Source: Mixophyes australis
Taxonomy: Eukaryota > Chordata > Amphibia > Anura > Limnodynastidae
Assembly (NCBI GenBank): GCA_036250195.1
Contig: JAVHZZ010000010.1
Coordinates: forward strand, 83,004,757-83,068,756
Length of the DNA stretch: 64,000 nt
Direction: 5' to 3'
This document shows, piece by piece, positions 2,495 to 57,342 of the stretch (position 1 is its first letter; every line of letters begins with the position of its first letter). Made by a program: the position numbers and the translations under genes. The notes under the pieces are model-generated. The model had not been told where the DNA came from, made no database searches, and saw only the letters and a list, made by a program, of their open reading frames with translations.

Positions 2495-2498
2495 GTAC
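2495..2498. repeat. Target-site duplication GTAC, left copy
   Basis: GTAC lies immediately outside the TG of the left LTR, and the same four bases lie immediately outside the CA of the right LTR at 12324-12327. A 4-bp duplication is normal for gamma- and epsilon-type retroviral integrases. Because the two copies match, the two LTRs and internal region arrived as one integration and have not recombined with another provirus. Confidence 0.85.
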
Positions 2499-3337
2499 TG
2501 TTATGTGCGTATTGTCGCTAACCAATAACGATTGTCGAACCTCGATTTGTGTTTCCAACGCACAAAGATTTATTCGCAATAAGTGGAAAAAATATGCTCA
2601 AGCGAAGTAATAGTAAATACAGCCGTTACTTATCGCAGGCACTCTGGATCCAGTGCAGTCATTCAATCCTGAAGTCTGGGGACAAGATGTCTGCACTCTG
2701 GATCACAAGCTGCTGCTTATATACACAATCAAATACAGTAATACAATGAAGATGGTATGGCTTGCATCTATTGGTCCGGGTCTCAGGAATGTCCAAGGGG
2801 TCGTCAATCATTGGCTGGTTCATCCTAAGGAATCCAAAGGAGGGGGTCATCTCTGCAGGGGGTATGCTCTGCTCTTCCCGCCAGAATTCCTTAGTCTTAA
2901 GTAGTTCATAATTCCCTATCATTCATAACTTGCGTATGCACTCTGCGATTCCCTCGCAGAGTGCACCAAACAGTAGGATATGTAACAAGGTTCGTTATGA
3001 TACCACTCATGATGTTATTCCTTTAACCCGTTCTGTGTATTTCACTAATATGCATGTAACTCTGATATAACATATAAATACTACTATATTTCGACATAAC
3101 TGACTATGTGTTGCAACTACCAATAATGTGTACTATTTTATAAGTATGCGTGTTTGTGCGAATGTATGGTAAAAGACCAATTACTGTTGCTGCCACGTGT
3201 AGTGGATGCGTACGCCCTTTCACGCCGTAGCGTGCCCTTGTACGTCGATGCGTACCGTACGCATCTTTTCAGACAAAGACAACCAAGTTTGCTAGACTTT
3301 AATTGATATGACTTTATCCAATTTGCTGACTTCGACA
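2499..3337 (-). repeat. 3' LTR of the provirus
   Basis: This is the downstream copy in the sense of transcription. On the minus strand a TATA box (TATATAAG, plus 2716-2723) and an AATAAA signal (plus 2569-2574) bracket the expected R region, with U5 running from there to 2499. A perfect 12-bp-arm palindrome lies at 2937-2965, about 215 bp upstream of the TATA box. The outer U3 part (3170-3270) is CpG-rich and repeats a GATGCGTAC-like motif, which could bind transcription factors or be a methylation target. In this copy the AATAAA would direct 3' processing of proviral RNA. Confidence 0.93.
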
Positions 3338-3351
3338 GTTCCACCCTTTGA
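3338..3351 (-). other. Polypurine tract (plus-strand primer)
   Basis: Read on the minus strand, AAAGGGTGGAAC abuts the TG of the 3' LTR. This is the place and composition expected of the retroviral polypurine tract, which resists RNase H and primes plus-strand DNA. The run is interrupted by one T and ends with C next to the LTR, so it is a modest rather than ideal tract. Confidence 0.7.
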
Positions 3352-3366
3352 TAGTGTAATAAACTA

Positions 3367-5157
3367 TCACCCAATCACCGTTTCAAGTTCAGGATTATAC
3401 AATACTTCTTCACAGACCATGATCTCGGTATCTGGTACCACCCTTTCAGTCTCTTTCTCAGTGTTACTCCCATGAGACCGTTTTCCACACTTCAACACAG
3501 TAGGAACACATTTGACAACTAAACCAGTTGCTAAGATGACACCCAGTATAAGGAGAAGGAGCTTACCTACACTAGCAACCATTTCCTGTACCCACTCCCC
3601 CAGACCGGAGAACCATTTTGCTGGGTTCAACCATGAGAACCAACCCGCCACCTTTTCCCCGACCTCATATAACGAAGAATTATGGCTCTTTCGAAATTCC
3701 CATTTCAGCTGCAAAATTTCATCCATCTTCCGGTCTATAACCTCTTTAGGGTCTTCCGTATTATTAGTAATGTACGTGCAACATTTGACACCGAACTGGG
3801 TGGCCAGTGTCACACAGTACCCACCAGTAATAGAGGTGAGATAATTTAGTACCAGTCTATGTTGCACCAACTCCTTCTTGTACGCTTGTAGCTCCCTTCC
3901 AGTATACCTGAAAGTGTCATCATACATCTCGGTGATATTATCTATTAATTTAGCTAGGTCTTGGATATATTTAAAGTTTAATGTTCCCCGAGCGGTCCTG
4001 GTGAGATCTAGAGCAACCATAACTTGGAAACCAGCAGTTTCACTAATCAATTTTGTAGCTATGGGTTCCTCACCAGGAATCATATTTCTCTTGCCACGGT
4101 GTTCATACTGTGTGTGTATGTATGGTGGTGATGTAGTCTTGTGAATATCTACCATTTCTTCATGAGTAATAGTCATGATTTCAGGAACCAGTTTAGCTAT
4201 AAAACACAAGCCCTTGGAACTCGGAGTCACCCAGGAATAAGCTTTCCTTCCACAAACAAAATACACATCATCAGGGAGAACATAAGGAACAGTATGCCCA
4301 TGAATTATATCACACAGAGTTTTGATAAAACTACCCAGGCCTAGTGTCTCCATCTGCTTTAGACACGTGTCGGCATTAATGATATTTTCACATTTATCTG
4401 TAGAGACTTTTCCAATAGATACCTTCTTATGTTTGGTTATACGCCCTAACTTGTGACTTCCATCAGCATTCCTGCCTAGTAGTGACCTTGTGAGTCTCTC
4501 TCTAAAATGAGTGTGGCGAGCCATTGTCTGATCTGATAGGTCAGCCTCCCAATTCTCCAGGCGCTTTGCATGAGATATGTTTAGGCACAGCAAAGATCTG
4601 CCTATGGAGTATTGTCGAAGCGTCAGACTAGGGGACCTAGTGTTATTGTACCTCCCTTCTATGGGCCTCCCACCCCTTAATTCGAGTACTTCGGATATGT
4701 TTAGAGGGAATGGCACTAGTCCTATGTTATGCTGCCCTTGAGGCACGTGAGAGCACACCCAACACTCAGTTTGGTTTAGCACCTTACCCACCAGGGAGTA
4801 ATAATCCTCCAAAGGATGCCCGCCTATATTCAGAGTACTGGGGGACTGGCATCGTTGGATGCATCTCTCGTCAACTAGGGAGTTGCAGAACTTGCAGATA
4901 CAATACTCATCAGACAATAGCCCCTCACACTGCCTCCGAGTTCCTGAGCTAGCAGACCTTTTCATAACCCCTGGACCAAGTTTGATAATGGGCTGCTCAG
5001 GATATCCTATTAACTTTTCTTCGGCCTCTATTTCATCCGTATCACTCCCAGAACTCTCCTCCGTCCTCCATCCTCCTTCACAAAAATAGAATGTCCTAGA
5101 AAAAGTAAAAACAAGGAAAATCCTGGAACAAAAGAAAAACAAAAACCGCCACTCCAT
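3367..5157 (-). CDS. env: Retroviral envelope glycoprotein (env), intact
   Basis: The product has 596 residues from the ATG at 5157; the frame is open slightly upstream, but only from a TTG. The ATG sits 2 nt after a good splice acceptor (TATCTTTCCAG, AG at 5161-5160), as expected for a spliced subgenomic env mRNA. The N-terminus (residues 1-26) is a strongly hydrophobic signal peptide rich in Phe. The surface subunit holds a CWVC motif (about residues 132-135), the CXXC type that isomerises disulfides in gamma-type envelopes, and several N-glycosylation sites. A furin-type RGKR lies at about 354-357. The transmembrane subunit has a heptad-like stretch, a Cys followed by CC (448, 459-460) and an anchor at about 532-550, then a tail of about 45 residues. 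Oddities are that ten residues rather than six separate the Cys from the CC, and that the sequence after the cleavage site is polar, not a typical fusion peptide. Function as an active envelope or captured syncytin-like gene is not shown by sequence. Confidence 0.9.
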   Translation of the reverse strand: MEWRFLFFFCSRIFLVFTFSRTFYFCEGGWRTEESSGSDTDEIEAEEKLIGYPEQPIIKLGPGVMKRSASSGTRRQCEGLLSDEYCICKFCNSLVDERCIQRCQSPSTLNIGGHPLEDYYSLVGKVLNQTECWVCSHVPQGQHNIGLVPFPLNISEVLELRGGRPIEGRYNNTRSPSLTLRQYSIGRSLLCLNISHAKRLENWEADLSDQTMARHTHFRERLTRSLLGRNADGSHKLGRITKHKKVSIGKVSTDKCENIINADTCLKQMETLGLGSFIKTLCDIIHGHTVPYVLPDDVYFVCGRKAYSWVTPSSKGLCFIAKLVPEIMTITHEEMVDIHKTTSPPYIHTQYEHRGKRNMIPGEEPIATKLISETAGFQVMVALDLTRTARGTLNFKYIQDLAKLIDNITEMYDDTFRYTGRELQAYKKELVQHRLVLNYLTSITGGYCVTLATQFGVKCCTYITNNTEDPKEVIDRKMDEILQLKWEFRKSHNSSLYEVGEKVAGWFSWLNPAKWFSGLGEWVQEMVASVGKLLLLILGVILATGLVVKCVPTVLKCGKRSHGSNTEKETERVVPDTEIMVCEEVLYNPELETVIG

Positions 5158-5214
5158 CGCTGGAAAGATAGTTCTGAGGCAACGTCTCTGGTTCAGGTGT
5201 CTCAACTGCAGGCT

Positions 5215-8200
5215 TTAGGTCTCCCGGAACAGGCTCACAAGTGACAGCTCTATGTCGTCGGTCTGAGTCTTGTCTTGCACTTTCTCCGGATTATGGACTC
5301 TCCTGCAGTGGGTGGAATGGACCCAAGTGTCTCTCTCTACAACCTTCAGTGATGTAGTACTGGTCAGCAGCACTTGGTACGGGCCTTCCCAACGGTCTGT
5401 TAAACAACCTGAACGTAAGAAATTGCGGATCATAACATAGTCTCCAGGTTCAACATCATGACAGTTCGTCTCTGGCATACCAGGTGACAGCATTTTTAGT
5501 TTTTGTTGTTGTTGTTTCAGCTGTCTACTCATTCTTATAAGATATTGTACAGTCACTTCATTATTACACTTTAAGTCGTCTTGTGGACTCACGATCAAAT
5601 GAGGTTGTCGTCCGAACAGTATCTCAAAGGGGGACAGATTAAGAGGAGGTCTAGGAGTGGTTCGAATGCTGTGGAGGACCAACGGCAAAGCCTCAGGCCA
5701 TGCCAACCCAGTTTCAGCCATTATCTTACCTAGTTTGTTCTTTATAGTACCATTTGCTCTCTCCACCTTACCACTGGCTTGTGGTCGGTAAGGGGTGTGA
5801 AGTCTGCTACTGATTCCCATGAGTTTACACATATTTTGGAAGACATCACCAGTAAGGTGGGTACCCCTATCACTTTCAATGATTCTAGGGATACCGAACC
5901 TACACACAAAGTCTTGTACAATTTTCTTTGCAGTGAACACAGCAGTATTAGTGGCTGCCGGATATGCTTCTACCCAACCGGAAAACACATCAATACACAC
6001 TAACACATACTTTAGATTCCTGCACGGTGGTAGTTGGATATAGTCAATTTGTATTACCTGAAAAGGTCCGTCTGTAGGAGGGATGTGGGATGGCTCAGTT
6101 GGAATAGTTTTCCCAACATTTTTCCTCAAACAAGTAAGACATGACATTGCTTTCTTACCAGCTTGAGAGGAAAATCCGGGAGCACACCAGTATGCTCTCA
6201 CCAGTTTGCACATACCTTCTTTACCCAGGTGAGTCAGGCCGTGTGCTGCTTCAGCCAGGCTTGGATAGTATGTTCGGGGAGCTACAGGCTTACCTTGTCC
6301 ATCCCTCCAGAGTCCTGAGGACTCTTGGCCACATCCCTTCGCCTTCCAGACCGCCTTCTCCTGCAGGGAACACAAATCTTGCATTTCAATTAATTTCTGC
6401 GTGTCTAATGTCTGAAAAACCATCATAGTCTCGGTCGATACAGTCATAGGTTGCCCTGCTGCCCATTTAGCAGCTTCGTCTGCCCTGTTGTTGCCCAATG
6501 ACACTGGGTCCTCTTCAAAGGTATGGGCTTTGCACTTTATGACGGCTACTGTTCTGGGTAATTGTATCGCTGTCAGAAGTCCTTTTATGTGTTGTGAATG
6601 TGCTACTGGTGTACCTGCTGCTGTCGTAAAGTTTCTAAGACGCCAAAGGGCCCCAAAATCGTGCACTACCCCGAAGGCGTACCTAGAGTCAGTATATATA
6701 TTGGCTGATTTACCCTCTGCCAATTCACATGCTCTCCTTAGTGCTACCAGTTCCGCCACCTGGGCTGAGTGAGGTGGGCCAAGGGGTTCAGCTTCTACCA
6801 CATCCTGATCGTCTACAACAGCGTAACCAGTACATAGCTCTCCTGTCTCTGTCTGTCTATGGCAACTTCCGTCTGTATAAAACGTAAAATCTACATTTTC
6901 TAAGGGGGTGTCACGTATGTCGGGCCTTGCAGTAAAGGTCTGATTCAGGTGTTCCATACAGTCATGCGTGTCAGTATTCTTGCCTAACTCATCATCAACC
7001 AGGGTCTCCTCACCTCCCACCCTTTGTGTCTCTTGAGACACATACGGAAGGTATGTAGCTGGATTTAGGGTGCTACATCGTTTGATGGTGATGTTTGAGG
7101 GTGCCATCAGGGCTAGTTCCCACTTTGTGAATCTAGCTGAAGAAACATGTCTGGTTTGGGCTGAATTTAACAGAGCTGATACAGCATGGGGTGTATAGAT
7201 GGTTGAATTATGTCCTAATACTACATCCTCGCTCTTACTTACTAGAAGGGCCGTTGCTGCTACACTTCTGAGACATGTTGGGAGTGACCTTGCCACATTG
7301 TCTAATTGTGCACTGTAGTATGCTACCGGTCTGCTAGCGTCACCATGTTTCTGTGTGAGGACACCTGCTGCACAGCCATCAGCTTCTGTACAAAATAGCT
7401 CAAAAGGCTTTTCATAATCAGGTATTCCCAATGCAGGTGCTCTTGTCAGACTATCTTTAAGGTTAAAGAACGCTTGCTCTGACTCTTCTGTGTGTACGAC
7501 ACGTTCTGGTTTTGAGGAAGAGACTAGCTCCTGCAATGGTAATGCCAGAATAGAAAAACCTGGGATCCATGACCTACAGTATCCACACATCCCCAAGAAA
7601 GTACGAATCTGCTTCTGGCTCTGTGGCAGGGTCATGTGTTGTATGGCCTCAATTCTGTCGGTTGTCAGGTGTCTTAGCCCCTTAGTGAGGCAGTGTCCTA
7701 AGTATTTGACCTTAGTCTGACATGGCTGTAATTTATCCTTTGCCACCTTGTGCCCTGTTTGTGAAAGATGAAGCAACAACAATTTAGTATCATGTAAACA
7801 TGACATAAAAGAATCAGAGCACAACAACAAATCGTCCACATATTGAATTAGAACAGACCCATTGTGGGGTTGAAAGGATTGCAAACAGTCATGTAAGGCT
7901 TGGGAGAAAATACTGGGGCTGTCAATGAACCCCTGGGGTAGTCTGGTCCATGTGTATTGCACTCCCCTGTAGGAGAATGCAAAAAGGTATTGGCAGTCAG
8001 GGTGAAGAGGGACTGAGAAGAAAGCAGAACATAGATCAATGACAGTAAAATGACTGGCAGACGGTGGAATCTGCATGAGGATGACAGCTGGATTCGGCAC
8101 TACGGGGAATTGGCTCTCAACAACTTTATTAATTCCCCTTAAGTCCTGGACTAATCTATAGCCCCTCCCCCCATTCTTCTTCACAGGGAAAATGGGACTA

Positions 8201-8889
8201 TTTGCTGTACTGGCTGTACGAATTAAAATCCCTTGTTGTAACAGCCTCTCAATAACAGGATATACCCCTAGTTCCACCTCCGGTTTTAATGGATACTGTG
8301 GGATTTTTGGAGCTATCCTACCACTTTTTAGATTGACCATGACAGGGGCTACGTTTGCCATCAGTCCAGTGTCCTGTCCATCTCTGGTCCATAGGGAACC
8401 TGGTATTTCCAGCAACATCCCCTTTACTTGAGGTGGACTTTGTTCTATAACAGGAGAGTGTAACATTAACCTTTGAGGGGTGTCCAATATGTCCTGTACC
8501 TCATGTGCAACCTTCTCGGGTATATCTAGGAACACACCATCTGAAGTACAGTATATGACACATCCCATTTTACATAACAAGTCTCTCCCTAGTAAGTTAG
8601 TAGGAGATGCTGCAGCTAAGAGAAACGAATGCTTAGTATGCAGAGGGCCGATAGTAACTTCAGCGGGTTTAGTTAGAGGATAATGTAACACTTTTCCCGT
8701 TACCCCCATAGCTGGAATGGTTTTACTGGTCACCTGTAGATTGAAAGGAGAGGTTATCACAGATCGGGCCGCCCCTGTATCTACAAGAAAAGTTTGTTTC
8801 CTACCAGCTATGTCAACTATCATTGTTGGTTCTTCACTCTGACTCTCAGTTAACCTCACTGGCTGTAGACTACAGGTATGACCTGACCC
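5215..8889 (-). CDS. pol: Pol: protease, reverse transcriptase, RNase H, integrase (readthrough)
   Basis: The 1224 codons follow directly in frame after the gag TAG. There is no ATG near the start, so expression is expected only as a Gag-Pol readthrough product. Numbered from the first codon after the TAG: aspartic protease LVDTGA (DTG 37-39); RT palm QYVDDLLL (350-353) with an LPQG motif ahead of it; RNase H TDGS (D673), E713 and YTDSRYA (D734); integrase zinc domain H883, H887, C917, C920; and the DDE core D949, D1007, E1043 with the standard 35-residue D-E spacing, followed by a C-terminal domain. Every catalytic residue looked for is present and no internal stop or frameshift occurs. The frame ends in TAA at 5217-5215, and env begins 57 nt later without overlap, unlike the overlapping pol/env of murine gammaretroviruses. 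Confidence 0.95.
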   Translation of the reverse strand, partial: GSGHTCSLQPVRLTESQSEEPTMIVDIAGRKQTFLVDTGAARSVITSPFNLQVTSKTIPAMGVTGKVLHYPLTKPAEVTIGPLHTKHSFLLAAASPTNLLGRDLLCKMGCVIYCTSDGVFLDIPEKVAHEVQDILDTPQRLMLHSPVIEQSPPQVKGMLLEIPGSLWTRDGQDTGLMANVAPVMVNLKSGRIAPKIPQYPLKPEVELGVYPVIERLLQQGILIRTASTANSPIFPVKKNGGRGYRLVQDLRGINKVVESQFPVVPNPAVILMQIPPSASHFTVIDLCSAFFSVPLHPDCQYLFAFSYRGVQYTWTRLPQGFIDSPSIFSQALHDCLQSFQPHNGSVLIQYVDDLLLCSDSFMSCLHDTKLLLLHLSQTGHKVAKDKLQPCQTKVKYLGHCLTKGLRHLTTDRIEAIQHMTLPQSQKQIRTFLGMCGYCRSWIPGFSILALPLQELVSSSKPERVVHTEESEQAFFNLKDSLTRAPALGIPDYEKPFELFCTEADGCAAGVLTQKHGDASRPVAYYSAQLDNVARSLPTCLRSVAATALLVSKSEDVVLGHNSTIYTPHAVSALLNSAQTRHVSSARFTKWELALMAPSNITIKRCSTLNPATYLPYVSQETQRVGGEETLVDDELGKNTDTHDCMEHLNQTFTARPDIRDTPLENVDFTFYTDGSCHRQTETGELCTGYAVVDDQDVVEAEPLGPPHSAQVAELVALRRACELAEGKSANIYTDSRYAFGVVHDFGALWRLRNFTTAAGTPVAHSQHIKGLLTAIQLPRTVAVIKCKAHTFEEDPVSLGNNRADEAAKWAAGQPMTVSTETMMVFQTLDTQKLIEMQDLCSLQEKAVWKAKGCGQESSGLWRDGQGKPVAPRTYYPSLAEAAHGLTHLGKEGMCKLVRAYWCAPGFSSQAGKKAMSCLTCLRKNVGKTIPTEPSHIPPTDGPFQVIQIDYIQLPPCRNLKYVLVCIDVFSGWVEAYPAATNTAVFTAKKIVQDFVCRFGIPRIIESDRGTHLTGDVFQNMCKLMGISSRLHTPYRPQASGKVERANGTIKNKLGKIMAETGLAWPEALPLVLHSIRTTPRPPLNLSPFEILFGRQPHLIVSPQDDLKCNNEVTVQYLIRMSRQLKQQQQKLKMLSPGMPETNCHDVEPGDYVMIRNFLRSGCLTDRWEGPYQVLLTSTTSLKVVERDTWVHSTHCRRVHNPEKVQDKTQTDDIELSLVSLFRET

Positions 8890-8892
8890 CTA
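8890..8892 (-). promoter_or_regulatory. Gag/pol amber stop with readthrough context
   Basis: The single in-frame TAG separates gag from pol, with no change of frame. The sense sequence after it, TAGGGGTCAGGTCATACC, begins UAG-G and is G-rich, like the spacer of gammaretroviral readthrough sites that fold into a pseudoknot. Pol has no initiation codon of its own, so programmed stop suppression is the simplest way to make it. A second possibility, that the TAG is an inactivating mutation, is unlikely because the position matches the family design. Confidence 0.8.
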
Positions 8893-10512
8893 GCGCTGAC
8901 TATTATTTTCTCGCGCAGCATTAGCTGCTATAATATGCGCGGGTAGCTGTGTGTTCTCTTGCCTATGTGTGTTTCTCCGTGGAGGATACCTATATGATTC
9001 CCCCCTTGATGTTTCTTTCCTTGCTTCTGGACAGAATCTCCTTATGTGTCCCTCTTTCTTACAGTGAAAACATACCATGGCCTTTTTACTTGAGTTGTAT
9101 GCTTGGTATGATTGTGGTTGTGTGTGTATTCCTTCTAAAGCCTGAATACTCACCGTCATCAACCTATCACCTTTCTCTTCTTTTTTTCGAAAGATATTTT
9201 TGTCATGTTCCACAGCAGACTCCCTAAGAGAGTCTACTGTGATACCTCTCCAGTTAGGTAATGAGGTTTGTACCCTTGTTTTTAAATTTTCCCTAAGACC
9301 ATCCATTAACACTCCTACAGCTACTTCCCTGTGATGTGGATCCTCTCTTATGTCAGTTACTCCGGTAAAGTGTGTTATTGATGCTAGCGCCCTAGAAAAA
9401 TAGTCTGCTGCTGTTTCACTATCCTTTTGCTTAATGGTGAAAATCTTACTCCAATTTACTACTACTGGAAAATAGATGGCTAAATGTTTGACAATTTGTT
9501 CTATATTCTTTTGGTTAATCTCATCAGTCAAGGTGTCATCTTCCTTCAACAAACAATCTTCAATGAATTTTTGTATGTTAGTATTGGGAGGAAGACACGC
9601 CCTCAACACTACACGCCAATCCTTATTGGTTGGTTCGTGGGCATTTCCTAAGTCTTTAACAAATTTCTGACACTTAGCCAACTCTTTTCTAGGATCTGGG
9701 AATTCAGTCATAATGGAACGTAATTCTGATCTAGTCCAGGGACAATGCATTGTAACATTTCTTAAAGGAACTACACCATCCTTGTCCGGTTTCCCATTGG
9801 GAACTGATATGGTGCGGACTGGGAACGCACCCTCTGGTACACTGACTTCAGGGGACACTACAGGATTTGCTAGTTCTAGATTTAAAACGCTTTCACTTCT
9901 AGTGATCACGCTACTCTCACCTATCTCAGCCATTTTCTCATACTTGCGCTGAGCCTTTAGTACACTAACAGCATGGGCAATGGCCGAAATCACAGTGGGT
10001 TCATCTTCATTTTCAGATACACTTGGTTGAAACTGGCTTAAAACAGGGTACAACTTAGCAATCTTTCTATTTTCAGTTTTAACAACGGCTGTACTTACCC
10101 CTCCCGCCACATAAGGTGGCGGGGGCGCGCTTGCGCTGAGTTCGCCACGCTTCGCAACGGTTACATCCGCCTTGCGCGCGCTTTTCGTCACGCCTACTTC
10201 CGGTTTGCATTCGCTGCTCTGCCACGTGTTACCTTCCATTTGCCACAATTTTAAACAATCATTATGTCTATTTCTCTTTTTCGTTGACTTAATCAACCAA
10301 ACTTTATCTCTTACGTTATTTAGTACTTCTGAATAAAAACTTCCTATTGTTGGGAAAGGCCTATCACAATCTTTGGTCATCTTGACCCACGTGTCGCAAT
10401 ACGCAGTTGCGTATGCACCATATTTCTTAAACATAAGATACCTAGCTGACCCCAGCGGTCCTTCCTTAAGCAGCACAACATCAACCATCTCTAGCGTTTG
10501 CTTCGCACCCAT
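8890..10512 (-). CDS. gag: Gag polyprotein, intact
   Basis: The product has 540 residues and starts with an ATG at 10512 (MGAKQ). Gly2 is the expected N-myristoylation site for membrane targeting of matrix. A proline-rich late-assembly motif PPPPY sits at 130-134, in a segment of GC- and CpG-rich DNA (plus 10085-10215) corresponding to the p12-like region. The capsid segment includes a major-homology-like region around the QKDSETAADYFSRAL stretch. A single nucleocapsid zinc knuckle of CX2CX4HX4C form starts at residue 481 (CFHCKKEGHIRRFC). One knuckle, PPPY and the in-frame TAG after residue 540 all agree with a gamma/epsilon-type Gag. The frame is uninterrupted. Confidence 0.94.
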   Translation of the reverse strand: MGAKQTLEMVDVVLLKEGPLGSARYLMFKKYGAYATAYCDTWVKMTKDCDRPFPTIGSFYSEVLNNVRDKVWLIKSTKKRNRHNDCLKLWQMEGNTWQSSECKPEVGVTKSARKADVTVAKRGELSASAPPPPYVAGGVSTAVVKTENRKIAKLYPVLSQFQPSVSENEDEPTVISAIAHAVSVLKAQRKYEKMAEIGESSVITRSESVLNLELANPVVSPEVSVPEGAFPVRTISVPNGKPDKDGVVPLRNVTMHCPWTRSELRSIMTEFPDPRKELAKCQKFVKDLGNAHEPTNKDWRVVLRACLPPNTNIQKFIEDCLLKEDDTLTDEINQKNIEQIVKHLAIYFPVVVNWSKIFTIKQKDSETAADYFSRALASITHFTGVTDIREDPHHREVAVGVLMDGLRENLKTRVQTSLPNWRGITVDSLRESAVEHDKNIFRKKEEKGDRLMTVSIQALEGIHTQPQSYQAYNSSKKAMVCFHCKKEGHIRRFCPEARKETSRGESYRYPPRRNTHRQENTQLPAHIIAANAARENNSQR

Positions 10513-11484
10513 TGTGAAAGCAACCTATTTCTCAACGCTACGCAAAAAGACTTTTTACCTGTTCTCCTTTCAAACAGAACTTACTAGAGATTTTTTTTAT
10601 CCGTGGACGGTTTCACAGGCTACGCCCACGCACCTCCTAACCCAGAAATATCACTATGGACAACAGAAATATCAGCTCCTCGATATCCTGGCTCTCCACA
10701 AAATTCTGTTGAGTATTACTGAACTGGTAGTACCGGGGTTTTATACCCGTTTGTACCAGCGTAATTCCTCTCAGCCGTTCAACCCAAGTCACAAGCACGG
10801 TTGTACAACCATGCGGTCCGATCGCACCGCTTAGCAATACTAACTATTACTAAACTTTGCGATTACTCTTGGGGAGAAAGTTTCCAAAAGCTTTTTAACT
10901 GTTCTCTTTTCAAACAGGGCTTTTGCTGCCAGTATACCTGCCTTGTATACTACCTCGGTTGCAAGCCCGCCTCGTCAAGCGGCAACCGATATCCCTGTCT
11001 TTTTGACAGTAAATCAACTTTCACTTCAAAATCATACAATCACAAAACACATACACCTTAGTTTTCTGCGCAGAAAATCAACAATATTCCCAACAATAGT
11101 GATAGTGTTTCAGAGACTTTCACAAGTGATTTATACTATGCATGTATAACTATCAAATTGATTGTTTAACCACGTGGCAAGTTTACCGGAAGTTCGCGTA
11201 CGCACAGCAGGAAGTACACATACGCTAAACAATGCAATACAGTTAAAACGCACAATGACAGAAAAAAGAAACAGTTTTCTCTTTTGTCCCTAGGTTCTAG
11301 TTAGCGTGCCCTAGATAATGCAAAACGGACATTCGGTTTCGCAACACAGAGTAAAATTCAGGTTTTGAACACCATGCGTTCTTACCCGTTTATGACGCGT
11401 CTCCACCCTTTGTTGAGGAACCGAAATCCGTTGGTCTTGCGTATCATCGGCAACGAAACCTCCAAAGCTCACGAGCCCCCAAAT
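10513..11484 (-). other. Proviral 5' leader (PBS, splice donor, presumed packaging region)
   Basis: The leader has 972 nt between the 5' LTR and the gag ATG, long for a retrovirus but within the gamma/epsilon range. A strong donor, ACGG|GTAAGA, lies at plus 11386|11385 and is the best candidate for the env subgenomic splice. A second weaker donor-like AACAG|GTAAAA falls in a duplicated 32-nt motif (10551-10582 and 10891-10922, 28/32 identical) that can form a CTGTT...AACAG stem. Such hairpins are typical of encapsidation signals, but that role here is inference. No upstream glyco-gag frame could be supported. Confidence 0.7.
11464..11481 (-). other. Primer binding site, tRNA-Pro-like (partial match)
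   Basis: Three bases after the 5' LTR, the minus strand reads TGGGGGCTCGT and then GAGCTTT. The first 11 bases are complementary to the 3' end of vertebrate tRNA-Pro (ACGAGCCCCCA), as in murine leukaemia virus. The remaining seven do not continue the match. Either a shorter primer duplex suffices or an unusual tRNA is used. Confidence 0.7.
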
Positions 11485-12323
11485 TGTTATGTGCGTATTG
11501 TCGCTAACCAATAACGATTGTCGAACCTCGATTTGTGTTTCCAACGCACAAAGATTTATTCGCAATAAGTGGAAAAAATATGCTCAAGCGAAGTAATAGT
11601 AAATACAGCCGTTACTTATCGCAGGCGCTCTGGATCCAGTGCAGTCATTCAATCCTGAAGTCTGGGGACAAGATGTCTGCACTCTGGATCACAAGCTGCT
11701 GCTTATATACACAATCAAATACAGTAATACAATGAAGATGGTATGGCTTGCATCTATTGGTCCGGGTCTCAGGAATGTCCAAGGGGTCGTCAATCATTGG
11801 CTGGTTCATCCTAAGGAATCCAAAGGAGGGGGTCATCTCTGCAGGGGGTATGCTCTGCTCTTCCCGCCAGAATTCCTTAGTCTTAAGTAGTTCATAATTC
11901 CCTATCATTCATAACTTGCGTATGCACTCTGCGATTCCCTCGCAGAGTGCACCAAACAGTAGGATATGCAATAAGGTTCATTATGATACCACTCATGATG
12001 TTATTCCTTTAACCCGTTCTGTGTATTTCACTAATATGCATGTAACTCTGATATAACATATAAATACTACTATATTTCGACATAACTGACTATGTGTTGC
12101 AACTACCAATAATGTGTACTATTTTATAAGTATGCGTGTTTGTGCGAATGTATGGTAAAAGACCAATTACTGTTGCTGCCACGTGTAGTGGATGCGTACG
12201 CCCTTTCACGCCGTAGCGTGCCCTTGTACGTCGATGCGTACCGTACGCATCTTTTCAGACAAAGACAACCAAGTTTGCTAGACTTTAATTGATATGACTT
12301 TATCCAATTTGCTGACTTCGACA
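11485..12323 (-). repeat. 5' LTR of the provirus
   Basis: This copy drives transcription leftward. The TATA box is at plus 11702-11709, the AATAAA at 11555-11560 and the U3 palindrome at 11923-11951, each exactly 8986 bp from its partner in the 3' LTR. It is identical to the 3' LTR except at four sites, three of them clustered within 13 bp near 11978-11990. U3 contains a CACGTG E-box-like site near 12180 and several CpGs. Confidence 0.93.
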
Positions 12324-12327
12324 GTAC
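12324..12327. repeat. Target-site duplication GTAC, right copy
   Basis: This directly follows the terminal CA of the 5' LTR (plus orientation) and matches 2495-2498. Confidence 0.85.
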
Positions 12328-12961: not shown

Positions 12962-13253
12962 CATACTTTTGAAAGTTGGCTTCCGGGAGCCTGTCGGGGG
13001 AGGTGGGCGTGATGGGGGGGCAGGCTCCAAAATTCACATCATTTTGGACCCACCCCGTGACGTAATGACGCAAACGCATAATTTTACAGCGGGGGGGGGG
13101 GGGCAAACGCTGCGATTCCCAGTGAATCCCGCATCTGCCCACTTCCTAGTGAAGTGGGCAGATGCGGGAGATTGCCACACTCTCCCGGGAGTCCGGGAGA
13201 CTCTCACGAAATGCGGGAGTCTCCTGGACATTCCGGGAGAGTTGGCAAGTATG
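12962..13253. mobile_element. MITE, family D
   Basis: The left end reads CATACTTTTGAAAGTTGG (degenerate) and the right end GAGAGTTGGCAAGTATG. The interior includes a G11-type homopolymer (about 13090-13103) and a short inverted pair CCGCATCTGCCCACTTC / GAAGTGGGCAGATGCGG around 13141. Same family as 141-427. Confidence 0.6.
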
Positions 13254-20838: not shown

Positions 20839-21856
20839 CTTGCCTACATTTTGGACCTCCCCTAGTGTAGCAGGAAGAGAGGCCATAAAGACATGAATCA
20901 CGTCATCCAGCGAGGATTAAGACATGAATCGCGCCAACAAGGTCACGCCAGACCCTCTTTACAAGAAGGAGAGGCGGGATCTGGGAGGAGCAGTGGTGTA
21001 AGAGGTGCAGTGTTTTGTTTTTTTTTCAGCAAATTGGCATCATATGTAATATTTAGATGTTACAAAGAAGGCAGGAGCAGAGCTGATCTCTGCCTCTTAA
21101 GAGGTGATGGAGGACGGAGGAGGGGAGAGAGCTGTGCTTTAATGATTAATCTCATTAACATATGTATGCACCCTGGCCCAGACCCAATTCTTCCACTACA
21201 CACACCCAGAGTAGATGCCACACAAAGCGACACCAAGGAGGCGAATATGGAGAAAAACAGAAATGCATCAATGCTCCATATTTGCCTCAGTACATAGACC
21301 CCGTAGTACAGACAGTATCACACATTATAAATCTTAATTGGACTGCACCACGTGTGCTGTTTGGAGGTATGTGTTTCATCCGCTATGGTATACAGGAGAA
21401 TAGTGCTATCATTGGTCTGATCCCCTTACTTGTCTGTCAATTCTTTCTTTTTAAATCTAATTATTATTTCTTTCTCTACTGTGCCTCTTTTAGGTCTGAT
21501 ATACATACATCTACTCTTTGGATCCCAAAAGTCTCTGAGGTTCTAATTTAAATGGGAACTCATCAAACATTCTTGTTATTTATTCCTTTCCATGTCCCTT
21601 AGGTATGGCAACAGATCTGCTGTGTAGATACCATAGTCATATATACCGGAGTCATATACAGCACACATTCTATATTACTAGATTAGGAGTTGCCATCAGG
21701 GGGTACAGGGGAGCCATATACATGGTGCAGCGGTATAAACCTTGGTAGCTCTCAGCCCCATTGCGCCACTTGGTTGTTACTTGTAGGGGAGAACACTGGG
21801 AATCAGTAACGAGCAAGCAATGGCCATGTGAATGATGAGTACATGGTGGAAGCTGC

Positions 21857-22724
21857 CATACACTAGCCACCAGATTGGAGGCCCTACCATACACTAGCCA
21901 TCAGATTGGAGGCCCTACCATACACTAGCCACCAGATTGGAGGCCCTACCATACACTAACCACTAGGTTGATAATCCTGCCATACACTAACCACCAGATT
22001 GGAGGCCCTACCATACACTAGCCACTAGGTTGATAATCCTGCCATACACTAGTCACCAGATTGGAGGCCCTACCATACACCAGCCACCAGATTGGAGGCC
22101 CTACCCTACACTAGACACCAGATTGGAGGCCCTACCATACACTAGCCACTAGGTTGATAATCCTGCCATACACTAACCACCAGATTGGAGGCCCTACCAT
22201 ACACTAGCCACCAGATTGGAGGCTCTACCATACACTAGCCACTAGGTTGATAATCCTGCCATACACTAGCCATCAGATTGGAGGCCCTACCATACACTAG
22301 TCACCAGATTGGAGGCCCTACCATACACTAGCCACCAGATTGGAGGCCCTACCATACACTAGACACCAGATTGGAGGCCCTACCATACACTAGCCACTAG
22401 GTTGATAATCCTGCCATACACTAACCACCAGATTGGAGGCCCTACCATACACTAGCCACTAGGTTGATAATCCTGCCATACACTAGCCACCAGATTGGAG
22501 GCCCTACCATACACTAGCCACTAGGTTGATAATCCTGCCATACACTAGCCACCAGATTGGAGGCCCTACCATACACTAGCCACCAGATTGGAGGCCCTAC
22601 CATACACTAGCCACCAGATTGGAGGCCCTACCATACACTAGACACCAGATTGGAGGCCCTACCATACACTAGCCACTAGGTTGATAATCCTGCCATACAT
22701 TAACCACCAGATTGGAAGCCATAG
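21857..22724. repeat. Minisatellite: 28 tandem 31-bp units of two types
   Basis: Exactly 28 head-to-tail units of 31 bp, with no insertion or deletion. Type A (20 units) reads CATACACTAGCCACCAGATT then GGAGGCCCTAC. Type B (8 units: numbers 4, 6, 10, 13, 18, 20, 22 and 27) differs in the second half, CTAGGTTGATAATCCTGC. Degenerate sequence continues to about 22,830. No coding frame runs through it and no promoter is nearby. Confidence 0.95.
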
Positions 22725-23246
22725 CATACACTCGCCATACATCCACATCCATATTGATAGTCCTGTCACACAATAGCTTCCCTATTGGAGGTCCCGCCAA
22801 ACACTAGTGTCAAGTCTCAAGGTCTCACTGTTGGTCTTACAGTTTGGGACTGTTTCACGGGGTGAACTGCTCCAATCACCAATTATATTGGGGTTTTTTG
22901 TAACTTGCCAACTTAATAGCTGAGTTCAGTTTCCTGTAACATCGTCCTGCCTCTTACATGCCCACACTTTGCTTTTAAATAAGCAGGAGATAGGCAGACA
23001 GCTGCCAATACTGTTGTTCCCAAGGACCAGGTCAGGTACATGATATAGGTGATATGAAGGTTCTGTTGGGGTTTGGGATAGTTCTAAAACCCAAGTTATG
23101 TTTATGATTAGAATTTAGACCTCGACAAGAGCAAACGCTTGGGGTAGGTGTAGATTAAGGATTTTACTAGTGTTAGAGTTATGTCAGGGCTATGATAAAA
23201 CTGGCAGAATAACATTTGATTGCTTTGTACACTGACTGGGAAGATT

Positions 23247-37446: not shown

Positions 37447-38571
37447 AGCTGGGTACACACTACAGAAAATTATTGCTTTCTGTAACGATTGAAAGTACCC
37501 ACCAGCATGCAGATTTATGTGCACACTTACACGATTTACCTTTTAGATCTGTGAATTCCATCTCTCATAACGATCTGCGGGATAGATTGTGAATTCTATG
37601 GAGATCCGCCTACACTGCTGGTGGTGAGTACATACACGCTGCCACATTTGCACAACATCGTTCCATCGTTGATCATGATTTTTAGGAAGTTTATAAAACC
37701 AAATCAAATGATAGGATGTGCTTTGGCGCGCTAAGACATGGTCGTGGGAGAGTGCATGGTAATGCAATATTATTATTATTATCCTTTATTTGTTAGGCGC
37801 CACAAGAGTTCCGCAGCGCCGTACACAGCACAAACAGTAGACTATACAGGTTAAGACATTACTGAACAATAAACAATAAATACCAAAACTTTAGAAACTC
37901 CAGGCAGGCTAATGTCTGTAAAGACGGAGCAGAAGAACAGGTATGGACACAGGAGGGAAGAGGGCCCTGCTCAAATGAGCTTACATACTAAGGGAGGGTG
38001 AACAAAACTCAAGCACAAAGGGAGCCAGTTGACGTATAAGGGAGAGAATAGGGGCAGGGAGGACAGGTTAGGTGGAAAAATTGGTAGGCTTTAAGGGACA
38101 GGTGGGTTTTGAGTGCCCGTTTGAAGGAGCACAGAGTAGGAGAGAGACGGGTGGAGCGGGGGAGGTCGTACCAGTGAAGGGGGGCTGCACAGGAGAAGTC
38201 CTGGATTCTGGAGTGGGAAGAGGTGACCAGGGTGAAGGAGAGGCGGCGGTCATTGGCCGAGCGCAGGGAGCGGGCAGGGGTGTGAATGGAGAGGAGGTTA
38301 GAGATATAGGGGGCAGTGGACTGGGAAAGAGCCTTGTACGTGGTGGTGAGGAGTTTGAAAAGGATTCTGTAGGGGAAGGGGCGCCAGTGAAGGGCAAGGC
38401 AGAGAGGGAAAGCAGAGGAGGAGCGGCGAGAGAGGAAGATGAGACTAGCCGTCGCATTGAGAATAGAGCGGAGGGGGGCAAGGTGGGAGGTCGGTAATAT
38501 CTGACCAAACAGTCATTTATCGTGTGCTCAGCATGATTATTGGATGAAAAACCTGTATTGTGTACCCAGCT
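37447..38571. mobile_element. MITE, family F (AGCTGGGTACACACTACAG ends), with nested LINE
   Basis: The ends read AGCTGGGTACACACTACAG on the left and the complement of a close variant on the right (TGTATTGTGTACCCAGCT), flanked by TAA on both sides. A LINE 3' fragment (37767-38500) interrupts it, so the MITE is the older insertion. A second, uninterrupted copy is at 41785-42206 in fads1 intron 1. A TAA flank would fit a PIF/Harbinger origin, but this is tentative. Confidence 0.7.
37767..38500 (-). pseudogene. L2-like LINE 3' end (ORF2 C-terminus), 5'-truncated
   Basis: The minus strand from about 38490 to 38050 reads without a stop as the C-terminal domain typical of L2/CR1-clade LINE ORF2. 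Motifs in order: ILNATASLIFLSRR, LALHWRPFPYRILFKLL, TYKAL, TAPYISNLL, ARSLRSANDRRL, and DFSCAAPLHWYDLPRS. It lacks the reverse transcriptase and has no start codon. It is followed by a 3' UTR with GAGCAGGGCCCTCTTCC and TGTACGGCGCTGCGG, and by an (ATA)n microsatellite tail at 37767-37782, as such LINEs have. The opposite strand is also open (38072-38497), but that is a shadow. Confidence 0.8.
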
Positions 38572-38744
38572 TAAAGGGAACATTTCCAACGCAGTTTAGA
38601 AAATAAATGCAGATATCTACTAGGGACACCTTTTCCTTTGCACCAAATGTGATATATGTCACCAGCTGTATTGTGAAACCAGTGTGTGAGCAAGTGACCA
38701 CCAGGCACCATGGTAACTCGCAGTATCAGTATATATACGTCAGA

Positions 38745-38751
<7 letters not shown>

Positions 38752-38783
<32 letters not shown>
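38752..38783. repeat. (TA)n microsatellite
   Basis: TA run of about 16 units, 300 bp upstream of the fads1 promoter region. Confidence 0.9.
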
Positions 38784-38788
<5 letters not shown>

Positions 38789-39049
38789 TTATTAATATTA
38801 ATATTACCTCCTGTTACTAACACCCCTTACATACAGAACTACGTCACCGGTGCTCTCCTGATTTTGTGGAACTAAAGTCCAAGCCTATGAACATGCAGTC
38901 TGATGACTTCACTTATATGACATGTGCTGCTCAATACAAAATAAGCAGTTACTCTGTATTAGGCCATGTCACCAGCCGTAAACTGCACAGTTTCAGCTCC
39001 CATTACAGGGCTCATCAGCGCCGCCTTCCGGCCACTTCGGGTGAATGAA

Positions 39050-39535
39050 TGAGAAGTCGTCATTGTCTGATTAAATAAAGCTGCCCTATACAGATTGGAT
39101 GTAACGGGCTTTCTTGGCGTGAGCGGGCTCTATACAATATAGAGAACACGCCGTGGATTGGCTGTTATGTCACTCTGCTGGTCGCCGTCCCGCCAATCAG
39201 TGGGAACGGGCGGATGCTAAGAAAGCCGGACACTTGACTGGTCAAGAGAGCGGAAAGGGGGCGTGTCCTGCAGCCGCAGTCCAGGAGCCTCTGGTGCTGA
39301 AGCTCAGAGCGTTGCTGCCGGGCGGAGGGACAGGAGCGCTGCGCACAGAGGTTGCGGGCAGGGCATAGAGCGCTGCGGGCAGGGCATTGAGGCTGCGGGA
39401 AGCGCATAGAGCGCGGTGCAGACAGGGCATAGAGCGCTGCGGGCAGGGCATTGAGGCTGCGGGAAGCGCATAGAGCGCTGGGCAGACAGAGGTTTTACGG
39501 GAATTAAAGGGATGGGCAATACATAGAAGTGACAG
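39050..39535 (+). promoter_or_regulatory. fads1: fads1 promoter and probable 5' non-coding exon (GC-rich)
   Basis: This is a CpG-rich block in otherwise AT-rich DNA. Two CCAAT boxes in opposite orientation, ATTGG at 39157-39161 and CCAAT at 39193-39197, lie 36 bp apart. NF-Y sites of this kind are usual at vertebrate FADS promoters. A consensus splice donor GACAG|GTAGGT at 39535|39536 suggests a 5' UTR exon joined to an exon carrying the ATG, with a possible acceptor TTACAG at 39840. That acceptor has a poor pyrimidine tract, so an unspliced leader is also possible. A 64-bp direct duplication lies at 39361-39488. Confidence 0.6.
39361..39488. repeat. 64-bp tandem duplication in the fads1 CpG island
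   Basis: Two copies (from 39361 and 39425) of a unit beginning GGGCATAGAGCGCTGCGGGC. Each unit itself holds three imperfect ~20-bp repeats of GGGCAT(A/T)GAG-type sequence. This is probably inside the 5' non-coding exon. Confidence 0.85.
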
Positions 39536-39863
39536 GTAGGTGTGCATGCATAAGGACACTGGGGATGGTATGTTATGAATAGAGGGGCTGCTAGGGGTAG
39601 ACAGAGGGGCAGGATTGGGCATATGACATGTACAGAATATTCAGCACTGTATGTTAGATGTGACTAGTGCACACCTATGAGCAGTGTATACAGTGTCCAG
39701 TATATATAGTCTATGTTGTGCTACAGATCAAGTATGTATAGGCAGTGTACAGAGAACCTATAGTCTATACTGGCAGTATATTATACAGTGCAACTCTGTG
39801 TAACGTGTGTAGACAGCCACATAGCAAAGTACAATTACAGACAAGGTATACATAGCTGAAGCC

Positions 39864-41163
39864 ATGGGTTCTGCAGGAGAACTTGCTCACTACACATGGG
39901 AGGAGGTCCAGAAGCGATGTACCCGCGAGGAGCGATGGCTGGTCATTAACCGTAAAGTGTACGACATCACAAGATTCTGCATGAAGCACCCTGGAGGGCC
40001 ACGAGTCATCAGCCACTATGCGGGCCAAGATGCCACGGTGAGTGGAGTCACAGCCCTCAGTTCAGCCACCACATATGGATAGTGCCATATAGCAAAAGGC
40101 AAAAGATCCAAGGTTTCCTAACTTGGGCTTATGTTCATGGGCCTAGTAGGATAGACTTATGAGCAGTCTGGCAGCCTCAGGTCTAGCATAAAGTTCTGGA
40201 GAACTGCAAAAGTGGTCCATCAGCTACCAAGCCCAGTGCCAGAGTTATAGGAAGCTTTCTTGTGGTTCTATGTAAAGGAGCATATGAGTTCTACCAACTA
40301 ATAAACTAATTATTAGTCACATTTTCATATTTTGTTGGTGACTATTTTCTAAACAGTTTTATAAGCAATGATGTACTTGTTTGGCGTTGGTTCTGACGCT
40401 GATTCCCACATTTAACCGAAGTCCTGTGATTTAAAAGTGATCACTAACTAAATGCAAATTGCCTTCTATAAAACCACTATTTTGTAATGTTATCAAATAT
40501 ACATGTATACGTTTCTGGAGCTGAGAAGATATTGGAGATAAAGATGTGATCATGGGGTAGATTTTACTTATGCATACCAGACTTTCTGACACTAAGGGCT
40601 AGATTTACTAAACTGTGGAAAAAGTGGAGATGTTGCCCATAGCAACCAATCAGATTCTAGCTATCATTTTGTAGAATGTACTAAATAAATGACAGAGAGA
40701 ATCTAATTGGTTGCTACAAGCAACATCTCCACTTTTTCAAACCTGCCTTTTAGTAAATCTAGCCCTAAGTCTATTGAAAGGTGGTGCAGTCAGTCTCTTT
40801 TAACTAGTAAATGCCTGATAACAGGGGACAATATGCACTCTGCTGCACAGCCATTGAAAATTCAATGTGAAAAGTCCCAAATTCTATTGAAATGTATTAA
40901 GTTTCACATCTATGTTTGTGAATGTAAAAAATGCATATTATTGCTTAATGAACTTTATATTATCGGTTTTGTAGGCGTTTACAACGAATTGATGCAGAGC
41001 AGTGTAATGATGTGAAGCAGGCAGGATTGTAACACTATGTTCATATCATAGACAAGTTCATGCAACTGATATAACACAGCAAAGTTCCATCTCATAAGTG
41101 GCTATATACCATACATCTAATATATGTACTGCTTTAATATATATGTGTGTGTATATGTGTGTG

Positions 41164-55931: not shown

Positions 55932-57080
55932 TTATTTGCCCCTCTTAAACTTCCTTGCTGGGGTGCCTGCAGTTTTTGCCTTTTTCTTGGCTGAGCCTTT
56001 AACATCCATCTCTTTCCTTTTGGTGGAGCTGATGGATCCAGTCACTTTGAAGAAGTCCTCTAGTCGCCCCTGTGTGCTGCCATGACGGTTCTTAGACAGC
56101 TTCTTGGCCCCATTCCTTATACGGTCCTCACTGAATTGTTTTTCTCCACACATGAAGGCCACCAAAGCATCCTCATCTGGGTCAACCCACTTTAAATCCA
56201 CGCTGTTTAAGTCAACCACCTCTGGCTCTATAAAGAGCTGTCGAGCCTCCTTGTGCAGCCAATTTTCGGGCACGGGGTACTTCTTAAGGTCTATATTATC
56301 CATGATCTCTTCAATAGTCTTATGCTGTCGGATCAGTTCTATAGCCCTCTTTGGACCAATACCTCGAATGGTCTCACAGTAATCACTGCCCAACAGTATA
56401 CAGAGGTCTATAAACTGCTCTTGTGTGATACCGATTTCCTCCAGGGCCCGGCTGAGGTGAAACTCTTGGATAGGCAACTTCTTGGCCTCGCTAGCGGTGA
56501 GATGACGCAACAACAGAGGGGTGCCAAAGGTCAAAGCGTCCATATCTTCAGTAGCTGCAGCGTAGACCTTTCCAGCTTTCACCAAGGCAGCACATGTAGC
56601 CTCTGCCTCGCAAGGTGCTTCCACATATGGGATGCCCATTAATCCAAGCAGTTTCTTGCACTCCTCGTTGTGCTGCTTTGTGACCTTCACAAGCCTCTTA
56701 TTGAATTTCTCAATATTCTCCACTTCCCCCGCCTCTTGTGCAGCCTCTAGCTGCTTCTCAGCCTCTGCCCTCCTCTCACTACGCTTGGCCAACTCGCCGG
56801 ACTTCAGCTGTGGAGGCTTCCCATCAAACACATAAACTGGCTTTATACCGTGCTCCACCATGCGAATTGTACGATAGAACATGCCCATTAAGTGGCTGGT
56901 GGTCTCACCATCCTCATTCTGAAGCACGTTGCCATCCTGCCGTACCGCAATAAGGAACTGGTAGATACACATAGAAGCGTCCACTGCCACTTTCCGCCCA
57001 AAGTAACTCTTTATGTCATTGTCTTTTATGGCTCCAGGTGCCACGTCGGCAATCAGTTTGGCCAATCCTTGAATTCCCAT
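55932..57080 (-). CDS. fen1: Flap endonuclease 1, complete, intronless coding region
   Basis: The nuclear structure-specific 5' nuclease removes RNA-primer flaps in Okazaki-fragment maturation and long-patch base-excision repair, working with PCNA. It has 382 residues from the ATG at 57080 (MGIQGL). The frame is open 19 codons further upstream, but that is 5' UTR after the splice acceptor. Gly2 forms the mature N-terminus in the family. Metal ligands are all present at canonical numbers: D34, D86, E158, E160, D179, D181, D233. The XPG-N domain spans about 1-107, XPG-I about 122-193 ([17 protein letters not shown]) and the H2TH region follows GSDYC. The PCNA-interacting box QGRLEDFF is at 337-344, followed by a lysine-rich nuclear-localising tail. 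Coding in one exon with a separate 5' UTR exon is the usual vertebrate fen1 design. It is convergent with fads1. Confidence 0.98.
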
Positions 57081-57342
57081 TGCAGGATGGTACAGAAAGA
57101 TGAAGTCAACAGGGCAAGTAAATTTATATCTGATCAACCTGAAAAAAATAAGGAGTTTGTTTTTACATTTGTGATGGTACCGTGGATATCAATATACTGT
57201 ATGTACATGCCTAAATACATACTGATGTTATTTAGAGATCACATAGTTTAGTAAGATTTGTCACTAATAAAGAAAATATAGAAGGAACAAAGAAAATATA
57301 AAATTTTGCGTATGCGAGATGCTTTGTTTAATAACACACTAT

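What the first reader, a model, noticed from the sequence alone, without database searches (positions are those of the whole stretch)
2499..12323. Young, structurally intact endogenous retrovirus with all frames open
Both LTRs are 839 bp with four visible differences (about 0.5%). A matching 4-bp target duplication, a PBS, a PPT and uninterrupted gag, pol and env with all catalytic residues are present. Retroviral families are usually degraded in vertebrate genomes, so this copy may be polymorphic, transcribed or even mobilisable. It appears to belong to a gamma/epsilon-like lineage in an amphibian, a group with few described proviruses.
Basis: partly seen in the sequence, partly recalled or inferred. 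Interest (0 to 1): 0.78.

Follow-up and report, generated by a model that had tools for sequence, protein, structure and literature searches.

The report
Young intact retrovirus in frog genome
A retrovirus that inserted itself into the genome of a frog close to the Australian barred frogs, perhaps one or two million years ago, still has all three of its main genes open, and its surface protein departs from a pattern described as fixed in its protein class.

Summary
On the minus strand, 2499-12323 is a complete class I provirus: 839-bp LTRs differing at 4 sites, GTAC duplication, a partial tRNA-Pro-type PBS, and open gag (540 aa), pol (in frame after one UAG) and env (612-codon ORF). Flanking FEN1 matches the frog Mixophyes fleayi at 395/401 residues. 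LTR divergence suggests 0.8-2.4 million years. A neutral-decay model with assumed indel rates leaves such a copy intact with probability 0.07-0.38, so open frames alone do not show function. RT places it with two unnamed relatives (100/100); the deeper place is unresolved. The less ordinary part is Env: a search of 5.8 billion proteins, limited to relatives sharing exact words, gave 3, two of them annotated in Australian frogs. All four have ten residues where the TM CX6CC motif has six, and His/Asn at two ISD positions reported invariant in 37 sequences (PMC11575397), although one solved viral GP2 also shows His/Asn there. Copy number, polymorphism and expression were not testable (genome search did not complete). 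Young intact provirus: known kind. Env: new variant, function untested.

The parts
2495..2498 (.). target-site duplication GTAC, left
12324..12327 (.). target-site duplication GTAC, right
11485..12323 (-). 5' LTR, 839 bp, begins TGTCGA and ends TAACA; TATA box near 11703-11709 and AATAAA at 11555-11560
2499..3337 (-). 3' LTR, 839 bp, 4 differences from the 5' LTR
11464..11481 (-). primer binding site; first 11 nt match tRNA-Pro, 13 of 18 in all
   Evidence: tRNA sequence recalled
10513..11484 (-). 972-nt stretch between 5' LTR and gag, including the PBS; one splice-donor-like site at 11386
8890..10512 (-). gag, 540 aa; begins MGAKQT (myristoylation-type, recalled), PPPY, one CCHC; ends in UAG 8890-8892; a simple major-homology-region pattern was not found
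5215..8889 (-). pro-pol, in frame after the gag UAG (listed ORF 5215-8859, 1214 aa): protease, RT, RNase H, integrase with MLV-type C-terminal domain
3367..5205 (-). env ORF, 612 codons, in the same frame as gag and pol, 9 nt after the pol stop; first Met at residue 17 (5157) followed by a hydrophobic signal-like stretch
4753..4764 (-). SU CWVC (CXXC) motif, residues 148-151
4087..4098 (-). furin-type site RGKR, residues 370-373
3778..3867 (-). ISD plus expanded CX10CC, residues 447-476 (30 residues instead of 26; H at ISD position 3, N at position 8)
3484..3594 (-). membrane anchor of TM, by hydropathy
3339..3349 (-). polypurine-like tract AAAGGGTGGAA before the 3' LTR

Best explanation
[quoted passage not shown] Shown: two LTRs, target duplication, three open genes in one frame, pol separated from gag by a single in-frame UAG, and a gamma-type Env with three related proteins. 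Inferred: transcription from the LTR TATA box; pol made by UAG readthrough as in gammaretroviruses; env made from a spliced RNA; Env cleaved at RGKR into SU and TM and linked through the CWVC of SU and the last cysteine of TM, but with a TM loop four residues longer than the standard one. The insertion is about 0.8-2.4 million years old at 1-3e-9 substitutions per site per year (0.2-6.1 with counting error).
For: LTRs, duplication and motifs; ORFs and Pfam domains; RT-RNase H matches a solved MLV-type p80 RT (4hkq, XMRV by recall) at E 5e-150; host FEN1; three-row RT lineage with support 100/100; whole Env matches Syncytin-1 at E 1.1e-7; Env relatives and alignment; age and decay model, rate range from PMC12822217 passages.
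Against: PBS complementarity stops after 11 nt and the PPT is weak. No stable hairpin follows the UAG (z 0.69; 148 of 200 shuffles fold as well), so readthrough rests on frame alone. The stretch after the furin site is only mildly hydrophobic (best 15-residue mean 1.09; the control stretches in that call fell outside TM and are not valid). The TM piece alone matches no Env family in Pfam. Both Env structure models failed (mean pLDDT 31.4 and 37.8).
Confidence: 0.93

Rival explanations
1. Env has been taken over by the frog as a host gene (syncytin-like or receptor-blocking), and this explains the open frame.
For: Env relatives are annotated in Mixophyes and Pseudophryne; the HR1-to-loop part is 76-95% identical to the window while SU is 47% identical in two of three relatives and 88% in the third; the Pseudophryne one is annotated syncytin-2-like.
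Against: gag and pol are open too and the LTRs are nearly identical. The M. fleayi relative is another copy whose gene model lacks both ends, the anchor and the last cysteine. Neutral decay allows intactness.
Confidence: 0.05
2. The LTR identity is an assembly or gene-conversion product, and the insertion is older than it looks.
For: Three of the four LTR differences sit within 12 bp (P 0.0019, post hoc), as a conversion tract or one complex event would give.
Against: No Ns and an exact target duplication; open frames over 7050 coding nt fit a young age.
Confidence: 0.07
3. A pol from one lineage with an Env from another (recombinant virus), as in XtERV-S.
For: The Pseudophryne Env is 53% identical, but the only Pseudophryne pol among the 120 listed hits (P0059) falls with other frogs, not with the window.
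Against: Only the best 120 of 585 pol hits were listed, and a matching Pseudophryne pol may be unannotated.
Confidence: 0.2

Closest known systems
Unnamed pol proteins P0001 and P0002 (source lgn, host not given)
   Same: 81% and 60% identical over RT-RNase H; one clade with the window, 100/100
   Different: host, env and LTRs not available here
Gammaretroviruses (MLV/XMRV)
   Same: gag-UAG-pol in one frame, one zinc knuckle, MLV-type integrase C-terminus; simple genome, 4-bp duplication and tRNA-Pro primer are compared from recall
   Different: RT outside the XMRV group in the 118-row tree though joining is not rejected; no Gag_p30 match at E 0.1; Env has CX10CC; env follows pol in the same frame without overlap
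XtERV-S of Xenopus tropicalis (PMC8278194, passages)
   Same: intact frog provirus, in-frame stop between gag and pol, class I (gamma-type) Env
   Different: identical LTRs, class III pol and gag, serine PBS, 5-bp duplication; the bullfrog relative described there has CX6CC
Env of Mixophyes fleayi LOC142151874 (P0241) and Pseudophryne corroboree syncytin-2-like (P0243)
   Same: 90% and 53% identical over 74% and 72% of the window Env; same CX10C loop and H3/N8
   Different: shorter (469 and 448 aa); P0241 has lost the last cysteine

Membership tests
Endogenous retrovirus (complete provirus) | paired LTRs, target duplication, PBS, PPT, gag-pol-env | tested here: met
   PBS and PPT imperfect
Class I ERV (gamma/epsilon-like) | RT closer to gammaretroviral RT than to foamy or lentiviral RT | tested here: met
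   MLV-type p80 RT 504 bits; 7o24 Pr125Pol (foamy, by recall) 189; HIV-2 105; HIV-1 about 86
Gammaretrovirus | RT groups with MLV/XMRV | tested here: inconclusive
   outside the 27-row set with XMRV (SH-aLRT 97), a set not recovered in the 49-row tree; holding window lineage and XMRV group together not rejected, p 0.249
Gammaretrovirus | Gag p30 domain | tested here: not met
   no PF02093 at E 0.1; Gag similarity seen to 7 of 120 ERV proteins, best E 2.7e-11 in that small set
Gammaretrovirus | gag and pol in one frame separated by UAG | tested here: met
Epsilonretrovirus | RT groups with walleye viruses | not testable with these tools
   no walleye virus RT came up in the 120 listed hits; grouping with five fish elements not rejected, p 0.101
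Epsilonretrovirus | Env without gamma-type hallmarks (PMC9967133 on WDSV/WEHV, passages) | tested here: not met
   CXXC, ISD-like stretch and CXnCC are present
Gamma-type Env | CXXC in SU | tested here: met
   CWVC 148-151; present in 3 of 4 proteins, P0243 lacks that part
Gamma-type Env | constant 26-residue ISD plus CX6CC | tested here: not met
   30 residues; CX10CC in 3 of 4, CX10CY in 1 of 4; H3 and N8 in 4 of 4
Gamma-type Env | N-glycan site in or near HR1, common in non-mammalian members | tested here: met
   LIDNIT in 3 of 4, LIDNII in P0241
Gamma-type Env | hydrophobic fusion peptide at TM N-terminus | tested here: inconclusive
   best 15-residue mean hydropathy 1.09, no valid control
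Gamma-type Env | sequence match to Env families | tested here: met
   TLV_coat 24.6 bits against cut-off 22.5 for the window Env; below cut-off for P0241 and P0242, none for P0243 or the TM piece
XtERV-S-like (class III pol with class I env) | class III pol | tested here: not met

The most novel reading that the evidence does not exclude
Australian frogs carry a recently active retrovirus lineage whose Env links and releases its two subunits through an altered switch: a TM loop of CX10CC with His and Asn at ISD positions 3 and 8, where a published 37-sequence alignment calls N3, D8, the cysteines and the 26-residue length invariant. It would be a natural exception showing which parts of the gamma-type fusion switch are really required. 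(Probability lowered from 0.4 on re-check: one solved viral GP2 also shows H and N at those positions, and the TM piece alone matches no Env family.)
Probability: 0.35. Interest if true: 0.62.

Novelty: new variant of a known kind. Interest (0 to 1): 0.48.

Why it matters
It is a fully readable, recently inserted provirus of a class I lineage for which no named close relative was listed, in a group of hosts with few described proviruses. Its Env family breaks a pattern that recent work calls invariant and ties to control of the SU-TM disulfide (PMC11575397, passages). If the Env works, the rule is not universal, and the frog proteins are a natural comparison set. If it does not, the lineage shows how far an Env can drift while its frame stays open.

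Tried and rejected
Copy number in the host genome: the same genome search failed 11 of 11 times as unreachable. Viral contigs: three scans (pol, pol alignment, env alignment) gave no confirmed relative. Other copies in the window: no LTR or protein match outside the provirus beyond one 19-nt hit at E 0.54. No tRNA gene and no Rfam family at gathering score in the window. A bacterial-type promoter scan of the LTR was not used. Structures: two models failed (mean pLDDT 31.4 and 37.8), so no fold search was made.

Idea rejected: that this Env is specially close to snake arenavirus GP2 (PDB 4n21; virus name recalled), which also shows H and N at the two ISD positions. The window TM matches it at E 0.014, but a fish ERV TM matches it at 5.5e-9 and a pigeon one at 0.0018, so the resemblance is not specific. 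The same calls show that the window TM is further from solved Envs (best E 0.011) than those two (1.4e-9 and 1.1e-12).

RT trees: 4 of the 120 listed homologs were dropped before the tree for over-long or short matches (P0006, P0010, P0065, P0106). The 49-row careful tree used a hand-picked 47 of the remaining 116 plus the window and XMRV. The frog grouping at SH-aLRT 97 was not among the supported sets after XMRV was added; XMRV's letter make-up was flagged as unlike the alignment's. None of three placements was rejected. A pseudoknot after the UAG was not tested; a simple fold was unremarkable. In print: CX10CC gave one paper, on crustacean venom, and CX7CC with retrovir none; other spacings were not searched. 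Endogenous retrovirus with Pseudophryne or Australian frog gave none. The library is open-licence PMC papers only. Papers were seen as search listings and found passages, abstracts included where a passage fell there.
Full report
What is there. The window carries one complete provirus on the minus strand at 2499-12323. Its LTRs are 839 bp and differ at 4 sites. In element orientation they begin TGTCGA and end TAACA, and GTAC flanks both ends. The 5' LTR has a TATA box and an AATAAA signal in the usual order. The PBS begins three bases after the LTR and matches tRNA-Pro for 11 nt, 13 of 18 in all (tRNA recalled). gag has 540 codons and ends in UAG; pol continues in the same frame with no further stop until its own end. 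env is a 612-codon ORF that follows the pol stop by 9 nt in the same frame, with its first Met at residue 17. Pfam finds protease, RT, RNase H and integrase with MLV-type C-terminus above cut-off, a zinc knuckle just below it (19 against 20.8 bits) and TLV_coat just above (24.6 against 22.5). Catalytic motifs are intact: DTG, YVDD, RNase H D-E-D-D, integrase HHCC and D-D-35-E.

Host. A FEN1 gene at 55932-57137 is identical to Mixophyes fleayi FEN1 at 395 of 401 positions; three differences lie in the protein proper and three in the extension before its start codon, one of them the TTG read as Met. The host is therefore a Mixophyes or close relative, probably not the M. fleayi reference itself. 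M. australis has a HiFi assembly (PMC10874372, passages) and is a candidate; this is inference.

Age and what intactness means. At 1-3e-9 substitutions per site per year (range quoted in PMC12822217, passages), four differences give 0.8-2.4 million years; with the Poisson range the span is 0.2-6.1. Three of the four differences lie within 12 bp (P 0.0019, post hoc), which suggests fewer independent events and a younger age, or a conversion tract. A model using the window's own codons, with assumed transition bias and indel rates, gives a chance of 0.07-0.14 (four differences) or 0.27-0.38 (two) that 7050 coding nt stay open neutrally for that time. Open frames are thus compatible with neutral youth and do not show function. 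A comparable intact frog provirus, XtERV-S, is in print (PMC8278194, passages).

Lineage. RT-RNase H is class I: the MLV-type p80 RT scores 504 bits, 7o24 Pr125Pol (foamy, by recall) 189, HIV-2 105, HIV-1 about 86. The nearest proteins are two unnamed ones at 81% and 60% identity; among the 120 listed of 585 hits, named vertebrate ERVs are at 51% or less. The window and the two unnamed proteins form one clade at 100/100. Its deeper place is open. A set of these three with ten others (nine frog rows and one unnamed) had SH-aLRT 97 in the 117-row tree but was not among the supported sets after XMRV was added. XMRV then sat in a 27-row set without the window lineage (SH-aLRT 97), and that set was not recovered in the 49-row tree. 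The data reject none of three placements: with nine frogs (p 0.263), with the XMRV group (p 0.249), with five fish elements (p 0.101). PMC6001957 (passages) reports its gamma clade only in amniotes and its epsilon clade in nearly all jawed vertebrates except birds, from a sample with 4 amphibians.

Env. A search of about 5.8 billion proteins, which reaches only relatives of similar length that share exact five-residue words, gave 3 at E 1e-3: M. fleayi LOC142151874 (90% identity over 74%), an unnamed cluster of 31 sequences (52% over 95%) and a P. corroboree protein annotated syncytin-2-like (53% over 72%). Env has a CWVC in SU, an RGKR cleavage site, an HR1 N-glycan site and a membrane anchor. 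Whole Env matches Syncytin-1 at E 1.1e-7; over the TM part the match is weak (13.6 bits), runs through the ISD and needs a four-residue insertion in the cysteine loop. In 4 of 4 proteins ten residues separate the first two cysteines; the last cysteine is present in 3 and is Tyr in the M. fleayi copy. ISD positions 3 and 8 are His and Asn in 4 of 4. PMC11575397 (passages) aligned 37 gamma-type entry proteins and reports N3, R4, D8 and the three cysteines as fully conserved with a constant length of 26 residues. Here R4 is kept in 4 of 4 and the cysteines in 3 of 4; N3, D8 and the length are not kept. Against reading too much into H3 and N8: a solved GP2 (4n21, snake arenavirus by recall) shows H and N there too, so the longer three-cysteine loop is the more distinctive change. 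Three other ERV proteins in hand (pigeon, fish, lizard) show the usual CX6CC; a fourth with a TLV_coat annotation, P0041, gave no such motif. The HR1-to-loop part is 76-95% identical among the relatives while SU is 47%, 47% and 88%, which fits constraint on TM but is not a selection test.

Limits. No copy number, read, population or expression data could be reached. The Env structure models were unusable. Pfam recognises the TM piece alone as no Env family. Whether Env fuses membranes is unknown; its TM N-terminus is not strongly hydrophobic and no valid control was obtained.

Verdict. The finding is real and correctly located. As a young intact provirus it is a new member of a known kind. Its Env family is a new variant whose function is untested.

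Noticed in passing
55932-57137 (-): Host FEN1 coding exon, 395/401 identical to Mixophyes fleayi.
   Followed up: yes
3367-10512 (-): gag, pol and env all lie in one reading frame, separated only by the gag UAG and by the pol stop plus three codons; in MLV env overlaps pol in another frame (recalled).
   Followed up: partly
333-425 and 13161-13253: A dispersed 93-nt repeat occurs on both sides of the provirus, 81% identical.
   Followed up: no
3350-3368: Short inverted repeat GATAGT/ACTATC overlaps the env stop and abuts the PPT.
   Followed up: no
21856-22737: Tandem array of a 31-nt unit, 28.5 copies, 81% matches.
   Followed up: no
38001-40000: GC-rich stretch (0.50) with strong GC skew 0.263, holding a short tandem array at 39353-39489.
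   Followed up: no
P0242: An unnamed Env cluster of 31 sequences with the same CX10CC loop; its host is not known.
   Followed up: partly
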